This document shows, one piece after another, positions 2,642 through 57,410 of a DNA stretch of 64,000 nucleotides. The notes beneath the pieces were generated by a model that made no database searches, was not told the origin of the DNA, and worked only from the letters and a program-made list of their open reading frames with translations. The DNA lies in NCBI GenBank assembly GCA_024408855.1, contig JAKSUQ010000001.1, positions 1-64,000 of the forward strand. Direction: 5' to 3'. Numbering within the stretch: the first letter of the stretch is position 1; each line of letters starts with the position of its first letter. Position numbers and translations under genes: made by a program. The DNA is from a bacterium (lineage in GTDB: Bacteria > Cyanobacteriota > Vampirovibrionia > Gastranaerophilales > Gastranaerophilaceae).

Positions 2642-2656
2642 TAATTTTGAATCAGG

Positions 2657-2686
2657 AAAGAGGCGGGTACAAACCGCCTCTTTTTT
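2657..2686 (+). terminator. Rho-independent terminator after hppA
   Basis: A 10-bp stem AAAGAGGCGG/CCGCCTCTTT with a 7-nt loop runs into a T tract, 15 nt downstream of the pyrophosphatase stop codon. Confidence 0.9.
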
Positions 2687-2807
2687 AATATTAATTTTAT
2701 GGTATTCCATAGTGAAAGCTAAAATAAAGTATTTTAAGAGATTTCAACTAAAAGATTGATTGAATAATTTATAAAAGTAGAGTATTCTTTCATGTGTGAG
2801 GTGTTGA

Positions 2808-3041
2808 GTGAATAACAAAGAACAGTTGCAAAAAAGAATACATCAAACTGAACTCCAACTGAAACGACTTACTCAGAATTGTTCCGGAAGTACTATTTGC
2901 GAAGATTTGTATAATTCTTTGATACTTCAAAAAGCTATATTAAAAAAACAATTGGACGATTTGAATAAAAATCCTGTCATTGAAAATATAAAGAAACTTA
3001 TTCCAAGACAAAAAAAACTCATTTGTGATTACTTCGAATAG
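2808..3041 (+). CDS. small coiled-coil hypothetical protein
   Basis: This 77-residue protein starts at GTG with GAGGTG (2798-2803) 4 nt upstream. It is highly charged and predicted mostly helical, with heptad-like leucine spacing over residues 5-52 and a basic C terminus. It has two cysteines but no recognisable metal motif and no signal peptide. It lies alone between the hppA terminator and a promoter-like TACAAT before the transketolase gene. I do not recognise the family. The ribosome site and the intact frame make it a likely real gene. Confidence 0.55.
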   Translation: MNNKEQLQKRIHQTELQLKRLTQNCSGSTICEDLYNSLILQKAILKKQLDDLNKNPVIENIKKLIPRQKKLICDYFE

Positions 3042-3135
3042 GTCTTGTTTTCTGTATACCGACTAATACTTCTCATATTGTTAACAAATTTTTAGTTTTT
3101 TGATATTTGTGGTACAATAACAATATGGTGGTAAG

Positions 3136-4080
3136 ATGTTTGTAATTGATTACGATACGGAAAAATCTATACGAGGAGCTTTTGGCGAAACTCTTGTTGA
3201 GTTAGGAAAGAATTATCCTAATCTTGTTGTGTTGGATTCTGATGTTTCATCTTCCACGCAAACCAAGCTTTTTGCAAAAGAGTTTCCTGAACGATTTTTT
3301 AATATGGGAATTGCAGAACAAGATATGATTGCCACTGCCGCAGGATTGGCGTTAACCGGAAAAATTGCTTTTGCTGCTACATTTGCTGTTTTTGCAACCG
3401 GTAGAACTTATGATCAAATTCGCTCATCCGTATGTTATCAAAAGGCTAATGTAAAGATTATAGGTACTCACGGAGGAATTACGGTAGGTGAAGACGGTGC
3501 TACCCATCAGGCATTAGAAGACATTTCTCTAATGAGAGGACTCCCGAACATGATGGTAATAGTGCCTGCTGATTGTAATGAATGCCGCCAAGCTGTAAAA
3601 TTTGCAGCAGAGTACAATGGTCCTGTATATGTAAGAATACCGAGAAATAATCTTCCGGATATTTATCCTGAAAATTATGAGTTTAATCCTTATAGAGCAG
3701 TTGTTATGCGTGAAGGCACGGACATAACGATTGTATCTAACGGTGATGTATTAAAAGAAGTATTAAAAGCTGTGGATGAATTATGTAAAACAGGTATATC
3801 AGCAGAAGTGGTAAGCTTGCCTGTTGTAAAACCGTTTGATTATCAAACTCTTATACGGAGTGCTGAAAAGACCTCCTTAGTTGTAACGGTTGAAAATCAT
3901 TCAATAAATGGCGGTTTGGGCTCTGCCGTCTGTGAAGTTTTATCCGAAAAACTTCCGACAAAGGTAGTTAGATTAGGTGTCCACGATACATTCGGACAAA
4001 GCGGAACTCCAAAGGAATTGTTAAGTTATTATAAATTGGATTCAAAGAGTATTAGTAGCAAAATAATGGAAATATTATGA
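3136..4080 (+). CDS. transketolase, C-terminal (pyrimidine-binding) half
   Basis: These 314 residues correspond to the second half of a transketolase: the pyrimidine-binding domain (residues about 8-165) with the catalytic glutamate segment FFNMGIAEQDM, and the transketolase C domain (about 190-305). With a separate N-terminal TPP-binding subunit it would move two-carbon units in the pentose phosphate pathway. That N-terminal gene is not adjacent: the upstream neighbour is an unrelated 77-residue protein. Split transketolases are common in anaerobes, but the halves normally sit side by side. A -10 like TACAAT (3113-3118) and GGTGG before the ATG suggest its own promoter. Its last codon overlaps ftsE (ATGA), so the two are translationally coupled. 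A related DXS-type activity cannot be excluded. Confidence 0.85.
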   Translation: MFVIDYDTEKSIRGAFGETLVELGKNYPNLVVLDSDVSSSTQTKLFAKEFPERFFNMGIAEQDMIATAAGLALTGKIAFAATFAVFATGRTYDQIRSSVCYQKANVKIIGTHGGITVGEDGATHQALEDISLMRGLPNMMVIVPADCNECRQAVKFAAEYNGPVYVRIPRNNLPDIYPENYEFNPYRAVVMREGTDITIVSNGDVLKEVLKAVDELCKTGISAEVVSLPVVKPFDYQTLIRSAEKTSLVVTVENHSINGGLGSAVCEVLSEKLPTKVVRLGVHDTFGQSGTPKELLSYYKLDSKSISSKIMEIL

Positions 4081-37559: not shown

Positions 37560-37750
37560 GTAATATCTAAACTTATTAATGTAGTAGGCTTTACAAATGA
37601 ATAAAATTGAAGTAATATAATTATGTTGCTTAGTATTTCTTAACATATTGTCAATAATTTTTGTTTTCAATTTTTATTTCAAATATAATATTATTGAACA
37701 AAATGCTTATGAAACAACAACCCATTATTAGAATTAGGAAAACTGATATT

Positions 37751-39523
37751 ATGAAAAAAAGACTTAGTTTTTTAGCTGTAATGCTATTTATCGGTGCTTT
37801 AAGCCAAGCTCAGGCTGATCCGTATTCAATGTCGTCTGCGGCAGAACGCAGTACATATGATGCCGGAGTTTTTAACAGAGCTGATCAACTCCAACTTAAT
37901 GATTATCAACTCGAAAGAAGTTATGTTCAAACGTTGGATCAACTTACAAATGACGAAAGAATTTATGACGGTACTGTTGAAGAAGATATCGCAAGAGAAG
38001 GTGTTTTGTACAATCCGCACTTTCTGTTAGAAAGAATCAACTTCGAAGGCAATACGCAAATTCCTGAAGAAGAACTTCACCATCTGGCTTTAGAAGTTCT
38101 TGGAGAAGATATCTTCTTTGATGAATTATTGGAAGTTTGCTCAAAGGTTACGCAATTGTATCACCAAAAGGGTTATTTGACTTCTTATGCAACTGTTCCG
38201 CCTCAAAGAATCGTTGATGGCGTTGCAACAATTAAGATTGTTGAAAGCAAAGTCGGCGACATGAATATCGAGGGTGAGAAATGGACTCGTGAGTGGTATT
38301 TAAAACATATTATTATGGGTAAGGCAGGTTTACGTGAAGGTGATGTATTTAATGCAAAGAACCTCCAAAGAGCTATGAAAGAAATTAACCGTGAAGCGTA
38401 CGTTCAGGTACAAACTGAAGTTGAACGTGAAGCAACAGGTGATGAAAATACAGAAATTACATTGAACGTAAGAGATCGTTTCCCTGTAAGATTTAGTGCA
38501 GCTTATGACGATTATGGTAGAACTTATACCGGTGATCAGAGAGTATCATTCCTTGTCGGTATGCATAATTTAACCGGTTTAGGAGATAAAATCTATGGCG
38601 GTACAACTTTATCATCAGGTGCAACCGGTTGGATGGCAGGATATTCACTTCCTGTATCTTCATACGGAACAAGATTATCCTTTGACTTTTCAGATTCTGA
38701 TATCAAATTGGGCGGACCATTCAAAAGCTCTAACGTAAAAGGTAATGCTCAAAGTTATTTCTTTAAATTAACTCAACCGTTGGTTCAAACTGCAAAATCT
38801 GATTTGTTCTTATATTCAGGTTATGATTTTGTGAAAGCATATACTTCCGCACAGCCAAGCGGTATTCCGAAATGGTATTTGTCAGACTATGAATTGCATG
38901 TATGGCGTACAGGCTTGTATGGTATGACAGATGACAATTATGGTCGTTGGATTGGAAGTTTAGGTGTTGATTTTGGTATGGGCGGTACCGAAAAAACAGG
39001 TAGATCTACTGCCGATACTTCATTCTTTAAATTGACAGCCGGTGCAACTCGTGTACAGAGATTGTTTAAGAGAAGCATGGGTATTGTGAGATTGAATGGT
39101 CAATATTCTCCTAACGAATTATTTGCAGCTGAACAAATGCAGTTAGGCGGACCTTACACATTAAGAGGTTATCAACCGGCTGAAATTATCGGTGATTACG
39201 GTTTCTCCGGAACGGTTGAATACAGAACTCCGCTTCCTTTGTTGGATAAGATTTGGCCTTGGTTGGATGATCGTTTAAGAATAGCAGCATTCTATGACTT
39301 TGGTTGGTTGGGTTCAAACAACAATGCTATGGATTATCCTGCATCATTCTTGCACAGTGCTGGTTTCGGAGCTTATTTCAACTTGACAGACTGGTTAGTA
39401 GCACAGGTTGGTGTCGGCTTCCCATTTGGCGACAAGTATAATGAAAATACTGCAAGATTTTATTTCAGTGTTAACTCTGACTTAGACAGAATTATACCGT
39501 TGAGAAATCCTGAAAAACTATAA
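37751..39523 (+). CDS. POTRA/beta-barrel outer-membrane protein, TpsB (FhaC/ShlB) family
   Basis: The 590-residue protein, from ATG 37751, begins with a signal peptide (MKKRLSFLAVMLFIGALSQAQA). A POTRA_2-type domain (residues about 75-155, LLERINFEGNTQIPEEEL to KIVESKVG) and a second POTRA follow. Then comes a 16-strand-type barrel with LRGY near residue 480, the motif on loop 6 of Omp85/TpsB proteins. It would move a partner polypeptide through the outer membrane, or insert one there. No TpsA-like substrate gene is adjacent. The frame extends upstream to TTG 37661, but that removes the signal-peptide start. Confidence 0.85.
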   Translation: MKKRLSFLAVMLFIGALSQAQADPYSMSSAAERSTYDAGVFNRADQLQLNDYQLERSYVQTLDQLTNDERIYDGTVEEDIAREGVLYNPHFLLERINFEGNTQIPEEELHHLALEVLGEDIFFDELLEVCSKVTQLYHQKGYLTSYATVPPQRIVDGVATIKIVESKVGDMNIEGEKWTREWYLKHIIMGKAGLREGDVFNAKNLQRAMKEINREAYVQVQTEVEREATGDENTEITLNVRDRFPVRFSAAYDDYGRTYTGDQRVSFLVGMHNLTGLGDKIYGGTTLSSGATGWMAGYSLPVSSYGTRLSFDFSDSDIKLGGPFKSSNVKGNAQSYFFKLTQPLVQTAKSDLFLYSGYDFVKAYTSAQPSGIPKWYLSDYELHVWRTGLYGMTDDNYGRWIGSLGVDFGMGGTEKTGRSTADTSFFKLTAGATRVQRLFKRSMGIVRLNGQYSPNELFAAEQMQLGGPYTLRGYQPAEIIGDYGFSGTVEYRTPLPLLDKIWPWLDDRLRIAAFYDFGWLGSNNNAMDYPASFLHSAGFGAYFNLTDWLVAQVGVGFPFGDKYNENTARFYFSVNSDLDRIIPLRNPEKL

Positions 39524-44639: not shown

Positions 44640-47600
44640 TTAGTTTGTTAAGAAAGAATTGTATTGATTTTTGATATTGGAGATGAGCATGTCCATGGCT
44701 TGGAATTTACTTTCAAGTCTCGCTTGATATCTGTCAACTGCACTTTGAGTTTTTGATATTTTTTCGTTGTAATTTGTGATTTGTTTTTTGAAAGCTGCTT
44801 CTTGGGTTGAGAAATATCCTGAAGCTGATGTGAGGGCTTGTTCCAATATAGTTTCCAAATTGTTGAAAATACCGATATCGCCCGTTTCATCATTGCCGAC
44901 AAAAAGGGTTTTGAGGCTCGCGGGATCACTGTTGAACGCATTTATGAATTTATCTCTGTCGAGAGAAAGTTTTGAAACATCATTTGTTGTGGTGGAAACG
45001 TTCCCTGTTGTAGCGTTTTTCGTAGAAATACCGACTGCTGAAAGATTTTTAAATACAGACGAAGTGGAAATTGAACTTGTCATAAGGCTTCTTATCTGGT
45101 TTCTAATCATTTTCAGTACGGATTGGTCAGAAAGTTTTCCGGTTGAAGCAAGTTCTTTATCAAGATTTTCAATCAGGGTATTATAAGAATCTATAACGTC
45201 ACCGATTGCATTTGCAGCAGTTTCAGAATCTCTTGATATTGTGAGCTCAACGTCTTCATCCTCCGGAGCGGTAACGTTTTTGAGGTTAATTGTTACGCCG
45301 TCAATTCTTGAAATGTCGCTTGTAACTGTATTCGAAGTCGATGTAAAATCTGTTCCGTCGATAGAAAATTTTGCATTCTTACCGATAGTTTGCGCATTAG
45401 TTTGCATCCTGCCTGTTGTATCAGTATATCCCATAATTTCGGTAAAGTTGCTCAAGGTAGCACCATCTGTTTGAGAGCCTTTTTCTATATTAATTAGAGA
45501 AGCACCCGTAATTCTTGAAGTAATCATCAAATTGCCAGAAACAGAATCCCAATAAGCAGTAGCATTAGCTTTGTCGCTTGAATTTATTTGATATACTAAA
45601 TCGTTAACTGTTGTATTTTCGTCAATGGTAAATGTATCATCACCGATAATAAAATCTCCGGCTGTAATTGTTCCCCTTCTGAACAATCCTGCTTCTGTCA
45701 GTTTTGAAGCCCCATTAACCTTATACAATCGTCTTGTTGAAGAAACTGTTCCATCCTCGTTATCCAACAAACCGCAAATTGAAGACAGATTTGTTGTATC
45801 GTTAGTTGTACCAATTTTAATAACGGCATCATCAAGGCTTGAATCTATTGTTAAAATACCGTCATCAAAACTCAAACTTACGTCAGAGAGAACGGATTGA
45901 ATTTTTGAATTGAGTTGGTCAAATGTTTCCTCTGTATCTACCTGAACGACTTTCTTTTCGCCGTTTCTGATTATAGACAGTGATCCTGAAGAAATTCCGA
46001 GAGTGCTGAGTTTCGTGTCAATATCTGCATCATTGGCTACGGAAAGAGCAAGCTCTTCAGTAATTGTGTGAGTTTCAGTTAATGCATCAGAGCTCATGCA
46101 ATATCCGCCCCGAGCCGAATTATAAACTAAGCCCAAGTTGTCTAAAAGATTTGATGTAGAATTTTCTGTATCAATAGAAAAGCTGTTCAAACCGCCATCA
46201 AGGGTAATAACTCCATCGCTGTCAATATTTGCAACAATTCCGATTTGTCTGAATTTATTAAGCATAGAGCCTATGCTGTCAGTTGAAGCTATGTGAACAA
46301 CATGCTGTTCGTCGTTAAAGCTTACAATCAAATCACCGGCACAATCGTCTCCAAACAAATTTAACATTGTCGCTTCGGTCGCACTTACGGAAGTTGTTGT
46401 TTCGTATGAAGCTGTACCGGAATAGTTGTATTGAGTATCTCTTTCATTTGTACCGAACAGTTGAGAGATTACATTTGAGGAGTCGCTTCTTTCTGAAGCG
46501 GTGATATAAGAGTTATCGTTTGCAGAAACAACCAGCTGTCGTCCTGTTTCTGTTGTAATATAGTGAGTTTGCAGTCCTTTATTTTCAAGCAAATTTCTAA
46601 AATCGCCTAAAGTTTGGTCGCTACCAACATATAAAGTCTCTCTTGCGCCGTTTTTGTAAATATAGAATGAGCCGTTTGTAACGCCTAATTCTGATAATCG
46701 AGTATTGTCATCAGCGTTAACTAAATCGGTTGCTTCGGATTGCAAATATACAGTTGTTCCGTTATAATTTGTGTCTATGTCCGTACTTCCGGAAGCACTA
46801 AGTGAACCGGAACCGAGGAGAAATTCCGCCAAAGGACCTCTGAATGAGTATTCTCTGTCGCATTTCGTATTTATTTTGCCGTCATCATCAATATAACCGA
46901 CAATTCCGTATTCCTGCAAGTCTTCTAATATTTTTCCTAATTGTGTATGCGAATTATATGCCAAAATGTGGTCAGTTCCGTCAACCGTAACAGTCAAATT
47001 ATAGCTTGGGCCGGTGTATGCGGAATTATCCGACAGACGTATTTGTCCGATTTCGGTATCAGTTGAAGCGTTTACATAACCTGAATATGTAATTTTATTA
47101 GAGCTTAAATTGCTTACAGTTGTTTCACTGTCAGTTATTGACGGTGCGGTGAAATTAAATGCACCCAAAGGTCCGGAAAGTGTGTAGTCGTCGGTATAAT
47201 CAAGACTTATTGTGCCGTCAGCGTTTAAGGTAGCCCCTATGCCCAAACTATTTAATCCGTTTAACATATCTTGAACGTTTGAATTAGCGGACAAGTATAC
47301 ATTGCCTTTAAGGCTTCCGTTTTGGTAAACTGACAGATTGCCTGCTTCGAAACCGACGATTGATCCTAATCTGGATGACAGTCCAATATCGTCGATATTA
47401 CTTGCCTGTAAGACAGAAGAAGTTGTGTTCATACTAATGACAGAGTTTTGTTGATGATATAAATCATCACCTTCAAGTTCAGTGAAGTGGAATATCGCAT
47501 CCAAATTGTCGTTGAAATCAGTATCGAAGTATGAGCCTGCTGTGCATCCGATGGTAAATCTTCCGTCGTCGATTGATGTAGTAAAGCCGTTGTTTTCGAG

Positions 47601-50600
47601 CCAATCTCTAAAGTCGCCTATTGTAGAGTTTTCTGTCATAGTACGAGTTACAGTTGTACCGTTAACGACAGCGGTAACGCTTTGAGCTTCTGTAATACCT
47701 AATTCGCCGAATGTAGTATCGTTGTTAATATAGCTTTCGACATTTGATTGTAATGTTGTAGTTCCTTGAGTATTGCGAATTTCACCGGAAGAAAGGACTG
47801 AGAATGAGTCATCAACATCAATGTTCAATTTAGCGAGAATGCCGTTATCACCGAGGCTGTCATCAGTAATATAGAATCCATCTGATTGTGTGATGCGAAA
47901 TCTGCCTTGAGACGTGCAAGAAGCAGTAATTCCGTATTCTTCCAATGCATCAATAAAATTACCCATTTCAGTACTGCCGTCATAGAAAATGTTCCGGTTG
48001 CCTGCGGTTGTATGAATTGTGAGAGAACCGCTTTCGGTAATGCCTAATTGAGCGAATGTCGTATTATCGTTAAGTTTAACAATATTTTCCTTTGAGATTA
48101 CACTGTCGCAAGACATAGTTTTGTTGTTAACAATCTGCAAATCGGATGAAGTTGTAGCTCCGATTTGAGCAAGGAAACCGTTCACAGAGTTAGAGTCAGC
48201 ACCTATAAAGTTTTCGCCGGAATTTGTAAAACTCAAATACCCGTTTCTAATGTTATAGTTAATTCCGTAAGAACCTAACCCGTCGAACAAATCTGCGAAA
48301 ATTGTACTTTCGTCATAATCAATAGTACCGACGTTATTGTTGAAAGTATTGTAGATGGTTAAAGTGCCTGAGCCGACGCCAATATCACCGAGGGTTTTTT
48401 CGGACAGCATACCTTCCGTAAGCTGAGTTGTGCCGTTCACTTGTTCAGTCGGATTAAGTTGGGCTGAGGTTGAGGTTGAGAAAGTTGTTTCGCTCAAAAC
48501 GGTAGTTCTTGTACCCAAATTAAACATAGCAGGCATGCCGGTGAGAACATAGTCGTCAGAGTATGTTAAAGACATTGAGCCGTTTCTAAAAGTAGCTTGT
48601 ATACCGTCATAAGCATTCAAACCATCCAAGACATTTTGAATAGTGGTGTTTGCTGCGAGATTAATGCCTCCGACAAGAGTTCCGTTTTGGTAGATATTGA
48701 TATTTCCTGATTCAAATCCTACCATCGTACCTAATTGTGTACCGGTTGTTGTTTCTGCTATATTTGTAACATTGAGGACGTTAGAATTCGTATTATGAGC
48801 AGATGTATTTGTTTCGGTATTGTATAATTGACTGCCTGTTTTTTCTTCAAAGTGGAATATGCCGTCTAAAGTGTCATTGAAGTCATTAACAAAGTATGAA
48901 CCTTCAGAACCGCTGATATTTAGTATTCCGTTGTTTAGAGTGGCGGTAAAACCGTTTGTATTCAAGAATGATTTGAAATCACTGATTGTTTTGGCACTTG
49001 TTGCTGTGAATACTTGTTGTGTACCGTTGTGCATAACGGTTACATATTGGTTAGAAGTTATTCCAAGCTGAGCGAATGTTGTTGCTAAGGTTGCTGTTGT
49101 GGTACCGTTTGCGGTGAATTGGTGTCCGTCGGTAACATTGTATGTATCACCTGCATCACTTATATTGTAGGAAGTATTTATATTAATGTGTAAATTATCG
49201 AGTAAATCACCTGTATCAGATGTTATGTAGGCATTATTGTTTTGATTGATTACAAATGTGCCGCCAGGAGTGCAACTTGCTGTTATGCCATAACTATCAA
49301 GGGCATCAATAAGGTCTCCGATATTATGAACAAGTTCTGTTCCAATATTATCCGGCGAGTATGTTATTGTTTCATCACCACTTGTAGTATGGATAGTTAA
49401 ACTACCGCCATGTATCCCTATATCTCCTAAGCTTGTCGTATCATCAATCGGTGTTGCATTATTCTCTGTCCCCAATACATTGCTTGGAGAATATGAGTAA
49501 GAGTCTTGAACCTTTTGTTGGCTTGGTTGTGTGATGCCGATTGTATTCAAGAAACCGTTTGTAGTATTAGAATCGCCTGAGATAAAGTTTCCGCTTGTAG
49601 AAGTAAAATTCAATGCTCCATCTGTTAAGTCATAATCTATGCCTAAATCGGAAAGTGCATCAAGTACATTCATAAATGTATCGTGATGACCATAATTAAC
49701 GGTTCCGATAACTCCTGTTGTGCTGTTATACACTGTCAGAGTCCCATCTCCAATGCCGGCGTTCCCAATCTCACATTCATATCGCTGACTAACAATAGTA
49801 GGAGAATTTGCTGGAGATAAGTTCAAACAATTAGCGATGTCGGGGTCTAATCCTCCAAGCAGATATTTATTGTCGCTATCGGTTTTAAATACTACACCAT
49901 CATTAGTTAAGAATACAGGTGCACCAAGAACCCTCAGATCGTGAATAGTCGTACTTTGGGTTACGGTTATAACTGAAGATGTGCCGTTACCTACAATCGT
50001 CATATATCTCGTACCGGTTAAGCCCAATTCTCCGAATGTCGTATAATCATCAGCAAGTTGACTGCTTACGTTGTGTTGAGTGTTACTTGTAGTTTGGGCA
50101 TAAGTCGTGTTGCTACCTGTCGCATAGGTGTATCCGGCACCTTGTTGTATGTGCAATTTTGTTGCAAGAGTAGCAGTCATTCCTTTTATATAACTTGAGT
50201 CTGTACCTGCGATAGTAACGGTACCGTTGTTTGTAGTCATAGTTATACCTTTTTGGGATAAAGCACTTGCCATTCCGCCAAGGGTAGTGGAGTTTGTGAG
50301 TGTTACAACAGATTGTGTACCGTTGTTAATAACTGTAACGTATGTCGTTGATGTTACCCCAATACTGCTGAGTTTTGTTGTGGTCGTTGCATTAACTTGA
50401 CCTGATGTCAGAGTTAAAGAAGGATTCTCTTCCAATCCGCCTAAAATATTGGTTAATTCATCCGAAATACTTTTAATATATTTTTGTCCGCCTTGTACTG
50501 TTATGGTACCGTTTGTAGAATCGAATGCCGTTGTAACTCCGGCATTGGTCATTTTTTGGCAGAATTGAGCGATTGTTGTAGATGCCGTTAATGTAACTAT

Positions 50601-53600
50601 CGTATTTGTTGAAGTTCCGGATGTTCCTATCGTTATATATTTAGTACCATTCAAACCTAAATTGCTCAAAGTTGTGGAACTGCTCAATATGTATGAGTTA
50701 GCAGTATTTACTTGAGTTGACATACTTGTGCCGGTCGTACCGCTGCCGGTAAAAATATTAACACCATCAATTGTATATGCTGTACAGTTCGTATCATAAT
50801 GGTTGTTTGTAGTAGTAGTTCCGCCGCTATGAATATTTCCAAAATCTATACATCCTGTGACATTAGCAACCCCTCCTGTACTAGTACCTTTGCTATCGGG
50901 TGCCTTACCTGATTCACCATCGCTACCTCCTTTTATAGTTTGGGATGCCATAATATATGTGGCACTAACATTACAGTTCTGTACAGTACCGCCCATAAAC
51001 ATACCTACCAAACCTCCATTAACAGAACTACCGTTATTAGAAGAGGATACGCTAACGTTAATTGCATTACAACCGGAAAGATTAGATGTACTTCCTTCAA
51101 GGTTTCCTATCAACCCGCCATTATATGCTACATCAGTATACGTTGAAACAGAAGATATTGTTGCATTATAAGCATTAGAAGATGTTATTGTAGCACTCCA
51201 TGATGATCCTGCTATACCACCCGCTCCATTTTGACCTGAAACAGATACATTATGGACTGCACTATTGCTGATTGAACTGCTGTTATGTCCAACTAAGCCA
51301 CCGGCATTATCACCGGATACCTCTGAATTATAAACTTTGCAATAGCTTACGGTACAATTGGTACTGGTAAAACCTGCTATTGCTCCGGCTGATCCTCTAC
51401 TACTTGCTGACGAATCAATAACAGCAACATTATAAATGTTTGCACCATTAACTGTATTACCAGCAATACAACCGGCACAGATCATCGACGACGATGATGT
51501 AATATCAAAATCTTTTATAATTAAGTTCTTAACGGTACCACCCAAATTTCCGATTAGACCGACTCCATTCCCATTACCGGACCAGTTTATAGTTAAATTG
51601 GAGAGTGTGTGTCCGTTACCGTTCAATTCATTAGAATATGTACCTACAAGGCTGCATTGATTTGTTGGAACAGAGCTCAAATCGATATCTGCACCGAGGC
51701 AGATTTTTTGGTTATTTTGTAGTGCTGCTGTTAATTGGGCAGTTGTTGTTACCCAAGTATATCCGTTTGATGTAGCTTGTGCTTGAGTCATAGCTGTAAC
51801 AGATTGGGCCAAACCTCCGTTGGCACCGGTAACTATAAGTTCATCTGTGGTTTCTGTTTGTCCAACAGTTACAGTTGCTACACCTGTATATGTTATAGGA
51901 GTTGTACTTGTTTGTGTTATGCCGATAGTTCCTGTCGTAACATGACTTGTATTACCAAACCCTAAGGCTGTTGCCAAAGCTCCGTCTATATAATTACCGT
52001 TAGGTGCAGATAGGGTGATAATGCCGTTATTCATTGTAGCTGTTATGCCATAATCATCTATGTGGTCAAAAACACTTTGTAAAGTTTCAGCATTTGTGAA
52101 TATTCTAGAAGAATCAGCAATAGTTTGTCCGCTACTGTTTTTGATGAGTAATCTGTAACCGGAAGTGCTTGTAAGCCCTATATCTGCCAATGTGTTGTTT
52201 GCGGAAGCGGTTGTGTTGCCTGAACAATATACAGGATTTGACGAACTCATTTCAGTAATAAGAGAAACAGACCTTGTATCGAGCATCATATCCAACAATG
52301 GGACTCCGTTGTTGAATACTATCGGGTCTGAGGTCTGATCTCCTGCTATGAGTATCGTATTATATGGAGTGTTAGTTACTGATATGCCTAATTGATTTAA
52401 TAGCCCCTGGTCCCCGTGGATATGATTATCGTGAATAAATAGTGTAGGATCATCCGGAGTTAAAGTAATTACTCCGTTTTCCATTGTCATTGTAACATTA
52501 TTATCGCCCATAAAGTCTTGCAAATCTTCAAAAGTCGAAGTCGACGTAACAGAAAAATGATTCGTTTCTATCCTTAAGCCAGCTCCAATATCAACATAAT
52601 CAGACATTAAATCGCTCAATATAGCGTATTCAGTGCTTCCATAGGTTACAGGAGTTGAAGACGACATATTGTTAACAATAGTGGTCGAAGATGCACTGAG
52701 AGAAGTGCTTATACCCAAATTCTCCGCAACAGGTCCGCTTATATAATACCCATCGTCAGAGCTTATATTTATTCTGCCGTCTGCAACAGAAAAATTAATG
52801 CCGTATTCTTCCAAATCTTCCGATATTTGGTTAAGACTTGTTGTTGAAGATACGTTTATTGTTCTTACGCAAGTACCTGTACTATCATTGACATATATTC
52901 TGCTGCCGCTTACTCCGATATCGCCAAGAGTATTTGTTCCGCTTGCATTTACTGTATTCGTGTAAGTAATTGGTGCGGTTGATGTAAGTGTAACACCGGT
53001 TGTCGTTTGTCCGCTTGTCGAATTTACAACAGATATTCCCAGAGCATCAGCCAAACTGCCTGTTACATAATAACCGTTAGGCGAATCAATATCTATAACA
53101 CCACCGCTTATTGATGCACTGTTTTCACCAATGCCGTCAACACTATTGATTTCTGTAATTACATCATCCAAAGTGTTTGATGTCCCAAAAGACAAAGTTG
53201 TTACATAATTGTTGCTACTGTCATAAACATTGAGCTCTGTGTGATTTCCGTCTATTCCCAATCTGAATAAAGTTGTATTTCCGTCTGCTAATACCTGGGT
53301 TGAACAGAATAACTCGCTTGTAGATTCTTGGCTATATGTGTTTTCAATTTCTGTTGTACTCTCGATATCCCACGCTTCAGCGAGCGTTCCGCCTGTTATT
53401 CCGTAGCTTATTCCCTCAACAGGTTCGTTTGTAAAGCTCAATCTGCCATTGTGAATGGACATTGTTATACCATAATTTAACAAATCTGTGGCTATTGTGC
53501 CTATATAGGTTGTAGTATCATAAGTACGAGGAGTACTGCTTCCGTCTGAACCGGTTATTACAAATGTTTGGTCAGAACTGAATCCTAAGTCGGCAAGTGT

Positions 53601-56303
53601 AGTATTTTCATTAAGCGTTCCGGCTGTTGTTCCGCTATAATTTACAAGTACTCTCCCTGAGGAAGATATCGTGTTCGGGCTGTAAAATTCCGTTGAACTT
53701 CCGCTATCTGTTATATTTACACCTAACTCGCTCATTAGGTTTCCGTCAGCATAAATATATCCTGAAGATGCTGTAAGTGCCATTGAACCATTGTTTAATG
53801 ACATTGTTATTCCGTCAGATGAAAGAGTAAGTTTAAGGTCATCAAATGTTGTGGAAGAATTTATTGTATAATTGTGAGTTGTTCCGTCTACAAGATTGTG
53901 AACCGCAAAACTCCAGTTGTCAGAATCTGTAACAAAATCCGATACACGTGATGAGAGTTTTGCTGTTTGTATTTCAGAATAAGTTATCGGTGCAGATGAT
54001 GTTAAAGCATTACCAATAGTCGTATCCGTAGTGGTTGTAACAGTCCCGACTCCTAATGCATCAGCTAACGATCCGTCAATGTAGTTTCCGGAATTTGATA
54101 CCAGTGATACTTTCCCGTCAAACATTGTCGCATTAATACCGTAATTGCCAAGTAAATCAAAAATTTCGCTCAATTTTGCAGTTGATGAAATTTCGTAATT
54201 GTCAATAACTTCACCGTCAGAATCTTTGATGTTCAAGGTGTATGTCGGGCCGTTAAGTCCTAAAGAACTTAAAGTGTTTGCAGAAGTTGCATTTTGCATC
54301 GAGCTGTAAGTAATTGCATCGGAAGATGTAAGTGAAACGCCGGTCGTTACAGTTCCGCCTATACCGTTAACAACACAGATATCAAATTTGTCCGCAAATG
54401 TACCTGCAATATACTTCCCGTCTGTTGATGTGATCGATAAAACTCCGTTTTCAAGGGTTACATTCTCGGCTCCAAATCCGTCAATACCTGCAATAGCATC
54501 CATTACGTCGCCAAGTGTTGTGTTTGTTGCAAACGACATTGTAGTAAAGAGATTTCCATCCGACCCATATATCTCTACATATGCTGTTCGGTCAAATCCT
54601 AATTCTTCAAGTGTATTTTCTGCTGTTGCAGTTGAAGTCGAAATACAATTAAGACTTTCTGAGGACTCTTGATGTATGGTGTTTACGGTCGTGGATTGTA
54701 ATCTGATACCCCAATCGTCTGCAAGTCCACCGCTTGTAATAGCATAAGTTTTTCCGTCCACGTTATGAGCATTGATAAAATTCAATACTCCCTCGTTTAC
54801 TGTCATTGTAATCCCATACTCATCATGTAAAGTATCGGCTATATTCCCCAAATTAGCCGTTGTAACAAAAGTTTCTGTGTATTCATTCCCCTCAGAATCA
54901 ACAATATTTATAACTTGATCTGCGGTATATCCCAAATCGGATAATTTCGTATCAGCAGTAGCATTATGTCCGTTATCATATGTTCGTAATGAATGACTCC
55001 CTAAAAGTGTGTATTCACCGGAAACAGTTTGATGTTTATTCAAACCGAATGCACTAACAGCATCAAATGTACCGCCGGTTACTTCCGCACCGCTTAATGA
55101 TAAAACTCCGTTTGTAAACTCGGCATGTACTCCGTCAAGTTCATTTAATTCGTTTACAAATTCACCGATTTTTGTATCAGCTGATGTTAATGTTATTGTC
55201 TCGACAGTGCCGTTATCAAGTTTGAGCTCAACAGTCTCTCCATCGGTAAGTTGATGATTAGTATCCAAAATGTCGTTGATTTTGTTCTCTGATGTCGCAA
55301 GTATACTATTGCCGGCTTGATGACACTGTAAATTGTTGCTGGTTAATGTTACAGAACTTATTGTACTGCTTAACCCTAAAGCTGATATAATATTGGTATC
55401 GCCCTCATCTGTAATTTCAGCGTTGGTAATAGAAAAAACACCGTTTTCTAATGTCGTACGAATACCATATTCCTCCATTACAGACATTAAATCATCAAAT
55501 TTGTCGCCTTCTTCAACTTGAACTTCATATTGTTCCCCATCATAATCTACATAAAAACTGCCTGTATGTATCCCAACATCTGATAAGTGAGTATTTCTGT
55601 CAGCAAAGTGTGTGGTAACATTGTCAATTTCTAATCCGCCGCTAACGAAAGACGGATTTGTGTTTTCAAGTTTTAATGCGGTTTTGATATTGGTATTACC
55701 TATATCATTTATTGCATCTTTATCAATATTTACCCCAAACTTGCCTGTCTGCACGTTGTACCCTGCATCAACTCCTTTATCCCTGAGTTTTTGTGCGAAA
55801 GTTGAAATTGTATCGTTCTCCTGAATTGTAACACGACTCGTTACATTCCCTACCGTAACTTCAATATCACCTGCATTTACCCCAATGCTCCTTAAGTATG
55901 TATCATATGTAGCTTGTGTTGTTTGATTGTATACTGTTGTCTGTCTGTATGTACTTTCAGCCTTTGTTTTTGTAGCGAGCTGGTCAACTCTTAAATTGTA
56001 TGTAGCTTCTTTTGCATCAGCAGTTGCAGATGCCGTAAGTACTTCCACTCTTGAAGATGTAGCAATGTTTTGTGAAAAAATATCCATTGAAGCAATTTTG
56101 AATTTCGAATCAGTAACCTTTTCCACCATTGAACGGAATGTCGAGAAAAAAGACTTTATCCCCGCCAAAGCATTATTGCTGTCAATTATATTTTCTTTTT
56201 TTTCTTGCAGCGTAGTAACCTTCGCTTGCTTCAATTGAGTAAGCGCAGATACCCATGAAGATGTATCCAGCCCTGAGGCTAATCCGCTGAACGATATTGT
56301 CAT
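44640..56303 (-). CDS. giant FliD-like flagellar cap protein with repeat modules and GLUG insertion
   Basis: The 3,887-residue protein has FliD ends. N terminus: SFSGLASGLDTSSWVSALTQ, then a helical coil and LRVDQLATKTKAESTYRQ (residues about 5-120). C terminus from about 3633: KFSIDGTDFTS, then a helical end with NEKISKTQSAVDRYQARLES and KFQAMDMLISNIKNQYNSFL. FliD caps the growing filament, folds flagellin and can adhere; usual length is about 400-700 residues. Between the ends I count about 28 divergent modules of roughly 110 residues including linkers, with pattern TTLxxLGI...VxV...T..T...DVLDAL..YGI.....NG.L.I....G.YI...LA..LGI, like the Flagellin_IN fold. One GLUG-motif domain lies near residues 1525-1795. 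The frame is unbroken. No ribosome site is obvious: AAAGTGA precedes ATG. Flagellar chaperone genes are not nearby. Confidence 0.87.
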   Translation of the reverse strand: MTISFSGLASGLDTSSWVSALTQLKQAKVTTLQEKKENIIDSNNALAGIKSFFSTFRSMVEKVTDSKFKIASMDIFSQNIATSSRVEVLTASATADAKEATYNLRVDQLATKTKAESTYRQTTVYNQTTQATYDTYLRSIGVNAGDIEVTVGNVTSRVTIQENDTISTFAQKLRDKGVDAGYNVQTGKFGVNIDKDAINDIGNTNIKTALKLENTNPSFVSGGLEIDNVTTHFADRNTHLSDVGIHTGSFYVDYDGEQYEVQVEEGDKFDDLMSVMEEYGIRTTLENGVFSITNAEITDEGDTNIISALGLSSTISSVTLTSNNLQCHQAGNSILATSENKINDILDTNHQLTDGETVELKLDNGTVETITLTSADTKIGEFVNELNELDGVHAEFTNGVLSLSGAEVTGGTFDAVSAFGLNKHQTVSGEYTLLGSHSLRTYDNGHNATADTKLSDLGYTADQVINIVDSEGNEYTETFVTTANLGNIADTLHDEYGITMTVNEGVLNFINAHNVDGKTYAITSGGLADDWGIRLQSTTVNTIHQESSESLNCISTSTATAENTLEELGFDRTAYVEIYGSDGNLFTTMSFATNTTLGDVMDAIAGIDGFGAENVTLENGVLSITSTDGKYIAGTFADKFDICVVNGIGGTVTTGVSLTSSDAITYSSMQNATSANTLSSLGLNGPTYTLNIKDSDGEVIDNYEISSTAKLSEIFDLLGNYGINATMFDGKVSLVSNSGNYIDGSLADALGVGTVTTTTDTTIGNALTSSAPITYSEIQTAKLSSRVSDFVTDSDNWSFAVHNLVDGTTHNYTINSSTTFDDLKLTLSSDGITMSLNNGSMALTASSGYIYADGNLMSELGVNITDSGSSTEFYSPNTISSSGRVLVNYSGTTAGTLNENTTLADLGFSSDQTFVITGSDGSSTPRTYDTTTYIGTIATDLLNYGITMSIHNGRLSFTNEPVEGISYGITGGTLAEAWDIESTTEIENTYSQESTSELFCSTQVLADGNTTLFRLGIDGNHTELNVYDSSNNYVTTLSFGTSNTLDDVITEINSVDGIGENSASISGGVIDIDSPNGYYVTGSLADALGISVVNSTSGQTTTGVTLTSTAPITYTNTVNASGTNTLGDIGVSGSRIYVNDSTGTCVRTINVSSTTSLNQISEDLEEYGINFSVADGRINISSDDGYYISGPVAENLGISTSLSASSTTIVNNMSSSTPVTYGSTEYAILSDLMSDYVDIGAGLRIETNHFSVTSTSTFEDLQDFMGDNNVTMTMENGVITLTPDDPTLFIHDNHIHGDQGLLNQLGISVTNTPYNTILIAGDQTSDPIVFNNGVPLLDMMLDTRSVSLITEMSSSNPVYCSGNTTASANNTLADIGLTSTSGYRLLIKNSSGQTIADSSRIFTNAETLQSVFDHIDDYGITATMNNGIITLSAPNGNYIDGALATALGFGNTSHVTTGTIGITQTSTTPITYTGVATVTVGQTETTDELIVTGANGGLAQSVTAMTQAQATSNGYTWVTTTAQLTAALQNNQKICLGADIDLSSVPTNQCSLVGTYSNELNGNGHTLSNLTINWSGNGNGVGLIGNLGGTVKNLIIKDFDITSSSSMICAGCIAGNTVNGANIYNVAVIDSSASSRGSAGAIAGFTSTNCTVSYCKVYNSEVSGDNAGGLVGHNSSSISNSAVHNVSVSGQNGAGGIAGSSWSATITSSNAYNATISSVSTYTDVAYNGGLIGNLEGSTSNLSGCNAINVSVSSSNNGSSVNGGLVGMFMGGTVQNCNVSATYIMASQTIKGGSDGESGKAPDSKGTSTGGVANVTGCIDFGNIHSGGTTTTNNHYDTNCTAYTIDGVNIFTGSGTTGTSMSTQVNTANSYILSSSTTLSNLGLNGTKYITIGTSGTSTNTIVTLTASTTIAQFCQKMTNAGVTTAFDSTNGTITVQGGQKYIKSISDELTNILGGLEENPSLTLTSGQVNATTTTKLSSIGVTSTTYVTVINNGTQSVVTLTNSTTLGGMASALSQKGITMTTNNGTVTIAGTDSSYIKGMTATLATKLHIQQGAGYTYATGSNTTYAQTTSNTQHNVSSQLADDYTTFGELGLTGTRYMTIVGNGTSSVITVTQSTTIHDLRVLGAPVFLTNDGVVFKTDSDNKYLLGGLDPDIANCLNLSPANSPTIVSQRYECEIGNAGIGDGTLTVYNSTTGVIGTVNYGHHDTFMNVLDALSDLGIDYDLTDGALNFTSTSGNFISGDSNTTNGFLNTIGITQPSQQKVQDSYSYSPSNVLGTENNATPIDDTTSLGDIGIHGGSLTIHTTSGDETITYSPDNIGTELVHNIGDLIDALDSYGITASCTPGGTFVINQNNNAYITSDTGDLLDNLHININTSYNISDAGDTYNVTDGHQFTANGTTTATLATTFAQLGITSNQYVTVMHNGTQQVFTATSAKTISDFKSFLNTNGFTATLNNGILNISGSEGSYFVNDFNDTLDGIFHFEEKTGSQLYNTETNTSAHNTNSNVLNVTNIAETTTGTQLGTMVGFESGNINIYQNGTLVGGINLAANTTIQNVLDGLNAYDGIQATFRNGSMSLTYSDDYVLTGMPAMFNLGTRTTVLSETTFSTSTSAQLNPTEQVNGTTQLTEGMLSEKTLGDIGVGSGTLTIYNTFNNNVGTIDYDESTIFADLFDGLGSYGINYNIRNGYLSFTNSGENFIGADSNSVNGFLAQIGATTSSDLQIVNNKTMSCDSVISKENIVKLNDNTTFAQLGITESGSLTIHTTAGNRNIFYDGSTEMGNFIDALEEYGITASCTSQGRFRITQSDGFYITDDSLGDNGILAKLNIDVDDSFSVLSSGEIRNTQGTTTLQSNVESYINNDTTFGELGITEAQSVTAVVNGTTVTRTMTENSTIGDFRDWLENNGFTTSIDDGRFTIGCTAGSYFDTDFNDNLDAIFHFTELEGDDLYHQQNSVISMNTTSSVLQASNIDDIGLSSRLGSIVGFEAGNLSVYQNGSLKGNVYLSANSNVQDMLNGLNSLGIGATLNADGTISLDYTDDYTLSGPLGAFNFTAPSITDSETTVSNLSSNKITYSGYVNASTDTEIGQIRLSDNSAYTGPSYNLTVTVDGTDHILAYNSHTQLGKILEDLQEYGIVGYIDDDGKINTKCDREYSFRGPLAEFLLGSGSLSASGSTDIDTNYNGTTVYLQSEATDLVNADDNTRLSELGVTNGSFYIYKNGARETLYVGSDQTLGDFRNLLENKGLQTHYITTETGRQLVVSANDNSYITASERSDSSNVISQLFGTNERDTQYNYSGTASYETTTSVSATEATMLNLFGDDCAGDLIVSFNDEQHVVHIASTDSIGSMLNKFRQIGIVANIDSDGVITLDGGLNSFSIDTENSTSNLLDNLGLVYNSARGGYCMSSDALTETHTITEELALSVANDADIDTKLSTLGISSGSLSIIRNGEKKVVQVDTEETFDQLNSKIQSVLSDVSLSFDDGILTIDSSLDDAVIKIGTTNDTTNLSSICGLLDNEDGTVSSTRRLYKVNGASKLTEAGLFRRGTITAGDFIIGDDTFTIDENTTVNDLVYQINSSDKANATAYWDSVSGNLMITSRITGASLINIEKGSQTDGATLSNFTEIMGYTDTTGRMQTNAQTIGKNAKFSIDGTDFTSTSNTVTSDISRIDGVTINLKNVTAPEDEDVELTISRDSETAANAIGDVIDSYNTLIENLDKELASTGKLSDQSVLKMIRNQIRSLMTSSISTSSVFKNLSAVGISTKNATTGNVSTTTNDVSKLSLDRDKFINAFNSDPASLKTLFVGNDETGDIGIFNNLETILEQALTSASGYFSTQEAAFKKQITNYNEKISKTQSAVDRYQARLESKFQAMDMLISNIKNQYNSFLTN
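50930..51730 (-). other. GLUG-type beta-helix insertion within the giant FliD-like protein
   Basis: This part of the giant gene encodes residues about 1525-1795. It has repeated GGLVG-like turns: GVGLIGNLGGTVKNL, AGCIAGNTVNG, GGLVGHNSSS, AGGIAGSSW and GGLVGMFMGG. The period is about 35-40 residues. GLUG repeats occur in surface adhesins and proteases and fold as a parallel beta-helix. The insertion lies between repeat modules 11 and 12 and is unlike the rest of the protein. Confidence 0.75.
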
Positions 56304-56341
56304 TTCACTTTACTTTCGCTACTTTTGGGGTATATGTAATT

Positions 56342-56375: not shown

Positions 56376-56510
56376 ATTTTTAATTATATCATATTTATAT
56401 ATACTTTTCAAGTGTATGAAATTTTATAAAATTTTTTACAAAGAAAATTTTTCCATCAGAAAACAAATAATGCCTGATAGGGTGTATATTGGTGTGATTG
56501 ATAATAAAAT

Positions 56511-57410
56511 TTATGCTTTCATTACATCAAAAAAATAATATAGCAATTCTTTGAAAAATCCCATGTTTTTTGGAAGTTCAGGCTTTCTTTGATTAAGAAC
56601 ATATTGAACTCCCGCCATTTTTTTACCATAATCCTTTGCTTGCGGTGCATTTTTAATGTTCTCAATTAATTTATCCTGTTCCTTAATAGACATATTGAGC
56701 AGGCTTTTAATAACTCTGATTGCAGGTTTGTTGTTTACCGGAAAATCGGGTAGTAGCAGAAAACCACCGTAGTCAATATTATACCCTCTTATGCGGTTTT
56801 GAATGGAATAATCAACATATTCCAACCCCTTTTTTAAAAGATTAATTTTTTTCTTCGGACGTTTATCCTTTATGGAAACGTACTTCGTAATCATAAATTG
56901 ATTTTTTTCATTTAAATTCCCAAAATAAAATTTAACCCAATCTGAATTTTCTTTTGCATTTAAGTACAAAGCGTTGTTTTGCTCGGAAAGGTTTCCGAAT
57001 CCTGGGCAATCGACTTCATAAAATTTGTCAAATAATTTTGCAACATAAGTTTTTTCCCCGACTTTCATTTTATATGTGCCGCCAAAACCACCTACTCCTA
57101 AAAAAGTGAATTTTACTTTTTTATCTGGTGAAATTGCCTTATATTTTACTAATCCCGCCTTTATTTTTTTAGCAATTTTCCTGCTTGAATCAACTTCGCC
57201 TATCTTTAATATAGATGCGAACATTTCGAGTACCTTGGGAATATTAGTATCTCTTTCTTCTTTTGGAATATTTTGTATCCATTCATTTGGAAGCGTTCCT
57301 ACAAAGCCTTTAGATTTCGGATGTCGTGCTACCGATCTCAAAATTTCTTCCTTTGTAAGAATATTTTTACGTAAGTCAGCTGTTAAACCTTGAAAAGATA
57401 CATCTTGCAT
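56511..57410 (-). CDS. compact protein-kinase-like protein
   Basis: The 299-residue protein has a kinase N-lobe pattern: LGVGGFGGTYK (residues 104-114, glycine loop), TYVAKLF with K125 as the ATP-binding lysine, and E143 in an alphaC-like helix. The catalytic core is condensed: YVDYSIQNRIRGYNIDYGG gives D200, N205 and D213-Y-G in the spacing of HxDxxxxN...DFG. Residues 1-100 are an extra helical region. No membrane segment or signal peptide is seen. The N terminus MQDVSFQGL resembles other hypotheticals of this lineage as I remember them. Kinase activity is inferred only. It lies upstream of, and in line with, the giant FliD-like gene. Confidence 0.6.
   Translation of the reverse strand: MQDVSFQGLTADLRKNILTKEEILRSVARHPKSKGFVGTLPNEWIQNIPKEERDTNIPKVLEMFASILKIGEVDSSRKIAKKIKAGLVKYKAISPDKKVKFTFLGVGGFGGTYKMKVGEKTYVAKLFDKFYEVDCPGFGNLSEQNNALYLNAKENSDWVKFYFGNLNEKNQFMITKYVSIKDKRPKKKINLLKKGLEYVDYSIQNRIRGYNIDYGGFLLLPDFPVNNKPAIRVIKSLLNMSIKEQDKLIENIKNAPQAKDYGKKMAGVQYVLNQRKPELPKNMGFFKELLYYFFDVMKA

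What the first reader, a model, noticed from the sequence alone, without database searches (positions are those of the whole stretch)
44640..56303. A 3,887-codon FliD: flagellar cap protein expanded about sixfold
The sequence directly shows an unbroken frame with canonical FliD ends and a huge middle of repeated modules. FliD is normally about 400-700 residues. The ends imply it is exported through the flagellar export system and sits at a filament tip or on an unusual appendage, while the middle looks like a long surface fibre. This could be a tip adhesin or a cap for a different filament.
Basis: partly seen in the sequence, partly recalled or inferred. Interest (0 to 1): 0.8.

Follow-up and report, generated by a model that had tools for sequence, protein, structure and literature searches.

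The report
Giant flagellar-tip FliD paralogue family
This gut bacterium carries, besides a normal flagellar cap protein, a second one stretched about 6.7-fold by some 26 extra copies of a head module and a beta-helix domain of adhesin type in the middle, and many related gut bacteria carry their own versions, so the flagellum tip has probably been turned into a long grappling arm.

Summary
In detail: one unbroken 3,887-codon frame (44640-56303, minus strand) with FliD ends. It is not an artefact: the ORF has no exact DNA repeat of 20 bp or more, and relatives of 1,200-6,600 aa occur in independently assembled gut MAGs of Candidatus Gastranaerophilales. The flagellated genome also has a normal 579-aa FliD. 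The giant is a FliD paralogue: residues 1-179 and 3409-3885 match the normal FliD at 41-42% identity, with about 3,200 residues inserted between. The insert is 26 extra copies of FliD's own head module plus one GLUG beta-helix. Giants of three genera form one clade (100/98), separate from normal FliDs. AlphaFold of a 1,200-aa family member gives the FliD D0-D3 fold (Z 20.8). Sequence identity is U-shaped along the chain: conserved ends, hypervariable middle. Best reading (inferred): a flagellum-exported alternative cap subunit whose modules form an out-and-back arm presenting a variable adhesive tip. Expression, tip location and ligand are untested. New variant of a known kind; no prior description found in the papers searched.

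The parts
44640..56303 (-). giant FliD paralogue, 3,887 aa
   Evidence: unbroken ORF; FliD_N E 4e-14 and FliD_C E 9e-37
55929..56303 (-). N-terminal D0/D1 segment, residues 1-125 (FliD_N)
   Evidence: Pfam FliD_N 10-112; 42% identity to the genome's own normal FliD over residues 1-179
51960..55904 (-). first module arm: 12 copies of the FliD head module, residues 134-1448
   Evidence: iterated module HMM
50676..51959 (-). mid-chain insert, residues 1449-1876: GLUG-type right-handed beta-helix (best modelled at residues ~1507-1770), followed by a low-confidence linker
   Evidence: Glug motif weak in sequence (E 0.045), strong in homologous inserts (E 2e-19); AF2 model of residues 1369-1960; Z 27.4 to the IgA1-protease beta-helix
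46080..50675 (-). second module arm, residues 1877-3408: the extra modules after the insert
   Evidence: module HMM
48426..49778 (-). four-module block, residues 2176-2626, first copy of an internal duplication
   Evidence: 40.6% identity over 456 columns to residues 2635-3081
47061..48401 (-). four-module block, residues 2635-3081, second copy
44640..46079 (-). FliD-like head (two modules) plus D1/D0 C-terminus, residues 3409-3887
   Evidence: BLASTP 41% identity to residues 110-577 of the normal FliD; the family C-terminal profile hits solved FliD structures, E 5e-19
56383..56411 (-). sigma-70-like promoter TTGAAA-17-TATAAT with extended -10
   Evidence: 11 of 12 matches, oriented into the gene; consensus match only
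56327..56332 (-). TACCCC leader element shared by many giant fliD genes
   Evidence: TACCCC in 15/30 giants' upstreams, 0/34 normal fliD, 7/638 other ORFs

Best explanation
The gene encodes a giant paralogue of the flagellar cap protein FliD. Shown here: its two ends are those of FliD; the residues between them are 26 extra copies of FliD's own head module plus one GLUG beta-helix; it belongs to a conserved clade of giant FliDs, under purifying selection, that is best explained by one duplication of fliD within Gastranaerophilaceae-type relatives; and a normal FliD is retained beside it. Inferred: it is exported unfolded through the flagellar type III channel by its FliD N-terminus and docks by D0/D1 at the filament tip, as a cap subunit mixed with or replacing the normal FliD. 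Both chain ends must meet in D0/D1, so the modules run outwards and back as a long arm that presents the mid-chain segment (beta-helix or variable modules) at its far end. At ~4 nm per module, ~28 modules out and back would reach roughly 50-60 nm (estimate). That apex is the most variable part and probably binds host mucus, plant or microbial polysaccharide, or a partner cell.
For: FliD_N and FliD_C domains. Paralogy to the genome's own 579-aa FliD with one insertion point. 28 modules versus 2 in the normal FliD by the same HMM. AF2 of a complete 1,200-aa member with 7 modules: VIA-align Z 20.8 to E. coli FliD 5h5v and 20.3 to the Salmonella cap 9gnz, with model residues 11-1200 spanning both ends. 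GLUG beta-helix insert: Z 27.4 to the IgA1-protease beta-helix and Z 16.0 to the L. reuteri SRRP adhesin. Non-module inserts lie mid-chain: 32 inserts, median relative position 0.40. U-shaped identity: mean 83% at the N end, 27-36% across the middle, 79% at the C end over 14 pairs; one pair has 95-100% identical ends and 16-36% identical middles. Giants form one clade, 100/98 support. The genome has 7 flagellin_N hits, FliS and FlhA. FliD as an adhesin is precedented: P. aeruginosa and mucin, and Pelotomaculum FliD binding methanogens (PMC4009794).
Against: No expression, secretion or localisation data. The gene is an orphan among lysine-biosynthesis genes, with a sigma-70-like rather than a recognisable flagellar promoter, and no conserved partner gene across giants. 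The structure prediction is of a homologue, not of the 3,887-aa protein itself, with pTM 0.41, so the arm's overall path is not predicted. The out-and-back geometry follows from topology and conservation, not from a structure. Export of a 3,900-residue chain through the flagellar channel has not been shown here. Some same-genus genomes show only one FliD_C match and no giant (for example G127, G020, G011), so the protein is dispensable there.
Confidence: 0.6

Rival explanations
1. FliD-type export and fold, but not a cap subunit: after export it is released or retained elsewhere (cell surface, hook-filament junction) as a secreted or surface fibre.
For: The genome keeps a normal FliD for capping. 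The gene lies outside flagellar operons. A second, FlhA/FliH/FliF-like export locus exists.
Against: The D0/D1 ends, whose job in FliD is to sit in the filament end, are the most conserved part, and the best structural matches are FliD rather than FlgK or flagellin. The second export locus also occurs in genera without any FliD hit, so it is not tied to giants.
Confidence: 0.22
2. Alternative full cap for a subset of filaments built from a particular flagellin (a specialised adhesive flagellum).
For: Several flagellins per genome, 7 here and up to 13 in relatives, and two or more FliD-type genes in many relatives.
Against: No linkage of a giant to a flagellin gene seen among the neighbours, and no evidence of separate filaments.
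Confidence: 0.1
3. The long variable arm is mainly a shield or decoy (immune, predator or flagellotropic-phage evasion) rather than an adhesin.
For: Hypervariable middle and cassette-like exchange between near-identical ends.
Against: Beta-helix domains of adhesin/enzyme type recur mid-chain in many members, and alignable middles are under purifying selection.
Confidence: 0.06
4. Assembly artefact or pseudogene.
For: All data are metagenome-assembled genomes. A few relatives have interrupted frames (L033 with N's; L045, L056, L077, L086, L103).
Against: No exact repeat of 20 bp or more in the ORF. Many complete giants from independent assemblies. Low dN/dS along the length.
Confidence: 0.02

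Closest known systems
FliD / HAP2, flagellar filament cap (E. coli 5H5V, Salmonella 9GNZ, Campylobacter 6SIH)
   Same: FliD_N and FliD_C domains, D0/D1 ends, D2/D3-type head modules; 41-42% identity at the ends to the genome's own FliD
   Different: 28 modules instead of 2; a beta-helix insert; encoded apart from flagellar genes; coexists with a normal FliD and forms its own clade
Campylobacter FliD with an extra D4 domain inserted in D1 (PMC7316729)
   Same: a FliD enlarged by inserted domain material
   Different: one extra domain inserted in the D1 helix, versus ~26 head modules and a beta-helix inserted after N-terminal D1
Giant flagellins (>1,000 aa; PMC6248924)
   Same: a flagellar filament protein enlarged between conserved D0/D1 ends
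   Different: filament subunit, present in thousands of copies, which thickens the filament; here a FliD-type tip protein, up to ~6,600 aa in this clade, built of repeated FliD head modules
GLUG-motif beta-helix proteins (IgA1 protease beta-helix domain 7UVK; B. ovatus 3N6Z; L. reuteri SRRP 5NXK)
   Same: the mid-chain insert's fold, Z 27.4 / 26.8 / 16.0
   Different: carried inside a FliD; no HExxH metalloprotease motif in the protein

Membership tests
FliD (flagellar hook-associated protein 2) | FliD_N domain at the N-terminus | tested here: met
   PF02465, 53.5 bits vs cut-off 24.8, residues 10-112
FliD (flagellar hook-associated protein 2) | FliD_C domain at the C-terminus | tested here: met
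   PF07195, 127.1 bits vs cut-off 25.4, residues 3641-3878
FliD (flagellar hook-associated protein 2) | D0/D1 helical ends packing together with D2/D3 head | tested here: met
   met on a 1,200-aa homologue (L104): Z 20.8 to 5h5v, 20.3 to 9gnz; not predicted for the window protein itself, where sequence homology stands in
FliD (flagellar hook-associated protein 2) | caps the filament and promotes flagellin assembly | not testable with these tools
   needs a mutant or imaging; the genome's normal FliD may do this
canonical FliD of its relatives (orthology) | groups with the canonical fliD products of the same genera | tested here: not met
   giants are a separate clade from canonical FliDs, 100/98: a paralogue within the FliD family, not the orthologue
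canonical FliD of its relatives (orthology) | two-module head, 400-700 aa (usual, not defining) | tested here: not met
   28 modules, 3,887 aa
GLUG-motif beta-helix domain (insert only) | Glug repeat by sequence | tested here: inconclusive
   window insert E 0.045, below the cut-off; homologous inserts E 2e-19
GLUG-motif beta-helix domain (insert only) | right-handed parallel beta-helix fold like the IgA1-protease beta-helix | tested here: met
   Z 27.4, rmsd 3.1 over 272 residues to 7uvk; pLDDT ~90 for the helix
Flagellin_IN (PF07196) as identity of the repeats | Pfam match of the repeats to the family | tested here: inconclusive
   not reported in the whole-protein scan; HMMER filters drop weak hits

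The most novel reading that the evidence does not exclude
Gastranaerophilales have evolved a dedicated class of flagellar-tip 'grappling arms': cap subunits of 1,200-6,600 aa, with more diverged FliD-like relatives up to 11,051 aa in other genera. Each is a hairpin of reiterated FliD head modules with an exchangeable, hypervariable apex. The flagellum thereby becomes a long-reach, target-specific attachment organelle for host mucus or partner microbes.
Probability: 0.4. Interest if true: 0.87.

Novelty: new variant of a known kind. Interest (0 to 1): 0.74.

Why it matters
FliD is usually regarded as a small, constrained cap. A conserved clade of giant FliDs with a conserved-ends, variable-middle design, seen in most genomes of one flagellated gut genus and two more, would show that the filament tip can be elaborated into a long specific binding device. 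It gives an uncultured gut group a concrete candidate for how its flagella contact hosts or partners. It also raises a testable question about how long a chain the flagellar export channel can pass.

Tried and rejected
Assembly artefact: rejected (no exact repeat of 20 bp or more in the ORF, independent MAGs, purifying selection). Giant as the only FliD of the genome: rejected (579-aa FliD on contig C18). Conserved operon partner: none shared by more than 7 of ~45 loci. Sigma-28 promoter pattern upstream of giants: one match among 26 giants. Metalloprotease in the insert: no HExxH in the protein. A dedicated export system linked to giants: the second FlhA-like locus is also present in FliD-less genera. 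The whole-protein genome-contig scan found nothing; the C-terminal alignment worked. Literature: no giant FliD found with FliD+Gastranaerophilales, FliD+giant, giant-gene or Vampirovibrionia+flagell queries; the library is open-access only, so absence there is weak evidence. Giants of g30/g39 have strongly diverged N-termini and were not placed in the tree.

Full report
WHAT IS THERE. The window's minus-strand frame 44640-56303 encodes 3,887 residues without a stop. Pfam finds FliD_N (residues 10-112, E 4e-14) and FliD_C (3641-3878, E 9e-37) and nothing curated between. GC at codon positions 1/2/3 is 0.42/0.44/0.31, and there is no exact DNA repeat of 20 bases or more. A sigma-70-like promoter with 11 of 12 matches and an extended -10 lies at 56411-56383, pointing into the gene. 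The neighbours are aspartate kinase on one side, and an unidentified 299-aa ORF and then lysA and cdaA on the other. It is not in a flagellar operon.

WHOSE GENOME. The assembly is a 1.96-Mb, 110-contig, 97%-complete genome. A search with the C-terminal domain alignment returned named relatives that are Candidatus Gastranaerophilales / Melainabacteria MAGs, many from rumen, yak and horse gut, so the window belongs to that order (inference from nearest relatives). The genome is flagellated: 7 flagellin_N hits, FliS, and a flagellar FlhA with FliP and FlhB beside it. It also has a normal 579-aa FliD on another contig.

ANATOMY. BLASTP of the normal FliD against the giant gives two main matches: 1-172 to 1-179 (42%) and 110-577 to 3409-3885 (41%). 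So the giant is a FliD with more than 3,200 residues inserted after the N-terminal D0/D1 part and before the normal head. An HMM seeded from one repeat and iterated finds 28 modules in the giant and 2 in the normal FliD: the insert holds 26 further copies of FliD's own head module, at a median spacing of 113 aa. Growth was at least partly by block duplication; residues 2176-2626 and 2635-3081 (four modules) are 41% identical. Between modules 12 and 13 sits a non-module stretch, residues 1449-1876. Homologous inserts in other giants match the GLUG motif strongly (E 2e-19; the window's own only E 0.045). AlphaFold of window residues 1369-1960 shows a parallel beta-helix at pLDDT ~90, closest to the beta-helix of IgA1 proteases (Z 27.4 to 7uvk, 26.8 to 3n6z) and like the SRRP adhesin (Z 16.0). 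No HExxH motif is present.

FOLD OF THE ENDS. A complete 1,200-aa family member with 7 modules (L104 = L043) was folded with 14 relatives (pLDDT 75, pTM 0.41). Its best matches are FliD structures: Foldseek E 2e-14; VIA-align Z 20.8 to E. coli FliD 5h5v and 20.3 to the Salmonella cap 9gnz, the latter aligned over model residues 11-1200 and so using both ends. Modules are predicted as small beta-beta-alpha-beta-beta units. By sequence, the C-terminal profile of the family hits solved FliDs at E 5e-19.

A CONSERVED CLADE. FliD domains were searched across relatives, order and phylum. At least 24 of the 32 same-genus genomes have a frame of 1,100-4,950 aa carrying FliD_C; other same-genus giants reach 6,137 aa, and two further genera of the family (g31, g44) have giants up to 6,603 aa. 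Other families of the order, and other classes of the phylum in the sample, have only FliD_C frames of about 800 aa or less. A maximum-likelihood tree of 113 C-terminal domains puts all giants of g1, g31 and g44 on one side of a branch with 100/98 support, away from the canonical FliDs of the same genera (two rows first labelled canonical are fragments of giants). One duplication followed by module growth explains this. Genera g30 and g39 hold even longer, strongly diverged FliD_C proteins, up to 11,051 aa, with many of the same modules; their relation to this clade was not resolved.

SELECTION AND SHAPE. In pairs with alignable middles dN/dS is 0.05-0.13 in the middle (synonymous sites near saturation), 0.23 in one more divergent pair, and lower at the ends: the long middle is maintained as protein. 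Identity along the chain is U-shaped. Over 14 pairs it averages 83% in the first twentieth, 27-36% across the middle (bins 5-12 of 20) and 79% in the last. One pair is 95-100% identical at both ends and 16-36% in the middle, as if a central cassette had been exchanged. Beta-helix and other non-module inserts lie mid-chain (32 inserts, median relative position 0.40). Since the two ends of FliD meet in D0/D1, the middle of the chain should be the part farthest from the filament; it is also the variable part.

HOW IT PROBABLY WORKS (inferred). Export through the flagellar channel, docking by D0/D1 at the filament end with or instead of normal FliD, modules running out and back, and a variable binding apex tens of nanometres from the tip. 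FliD has been implicated in adhesion before: P. aeruginosa FliD and mucin, and Pelotomaculum FliD binding methanogens (PMC4009794). Ligand, location, stoichiometry and expression are all untested.

COMPARISON. It is a member of the FliD family by both domains and by fold, but a paralogue, not the orthologue of canonical FliD, and whether it caps filaments cannot be tested here. Giant flagellins (PMC6248924) are the nearest known idea but concern the filament subunit. No description of giant FliDs was found in the open-access library; that is a limited search.

LIMITS. All genomes are metagenome assemblies; a few relatives have interrupted frames; the structure model is of a homologue; the arm geometry is an inference from topology and conservation.

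Noticed in passing
L162:7751-14717 (G000:C16), second FlhA at C16:29127-31103: A second FlhA-like export gate with FliH- and FliF/SctJ-like genes beside it. In the order sample, the ~730-bit FlhA type also appears in genera with no FliD hit, suggesting that non-flagellated Gastranaerophilales keep a flagellum- or T3SS-like export locus.
   Followed up: partly
L146+L147 (G201:C5), L148, L149, L151, L152, L153: Strongly diverged FliD_C giants in genera g30 and g39, up to 11,051 aa with 38 modules and GLUG-like repeats; in L150 and L152 the giant lies in tandem with a ~480-aa canonical FliD.
   Followed up: partly
window 56327-56332 and upstream of other giant fliD genes: TTACCCC 30-85 nt before the start codon in 12 of 30 giants, 0 of 34 normal fliD and 6 of 638 other ORFs; in the window it is TACCCC, downstream of a sigma-70-like promoter. 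Function unknown.
   Followed up: partly
G003:C74:16077, G015:C24:221, G015:C8:3788, G008:C15:17977: Flagellin_N frames of 1,342-1,801 aa (giant flagellins) in same-genus genomes, besides many normal flagellins.
   Followed up: no
L038/L039 (G013:C36), L041/L042 (G005:C12), L111: Head-to-tail tandem pairs of giant FliDs: a larger, more diverged one (4,940-5,406 aa where complete) followed by one of ~1,300-1,400 aa.
   Followed up: partly
L047 versus L099: Two giants with 95-100% identical ends but 16-36% identical middles, suggesting exchange of the central cassette.
   Followed up: partly
window 37661-39523: BamA/ShlB-type outer-membrane transporter with POTRA domains (two-partner-secretion-like).
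   Followed up: no
window 56511-57410: 299-aa ORF with no Pfam or NCBIfam match; it begins MQDVSFQG and contains a kinase-like glycine-rich stretch (GVGGFGGTYKMKVGEKTYVAKLF).
   Followed up: no
L092: Record titled 'uncultured Acinetobacter sp.' carries a giant FliD of the Gastranaerophilales clade; probably a mislabelled or mixed MAG.
   Followed up: no
L033, L045/L060, L056, L077, L086, L103: Giant FliD genes with interrupted frames (N run in L033, apparent frame breaks elsewhere): assembly errors or decaying copies.
   Followed up: no
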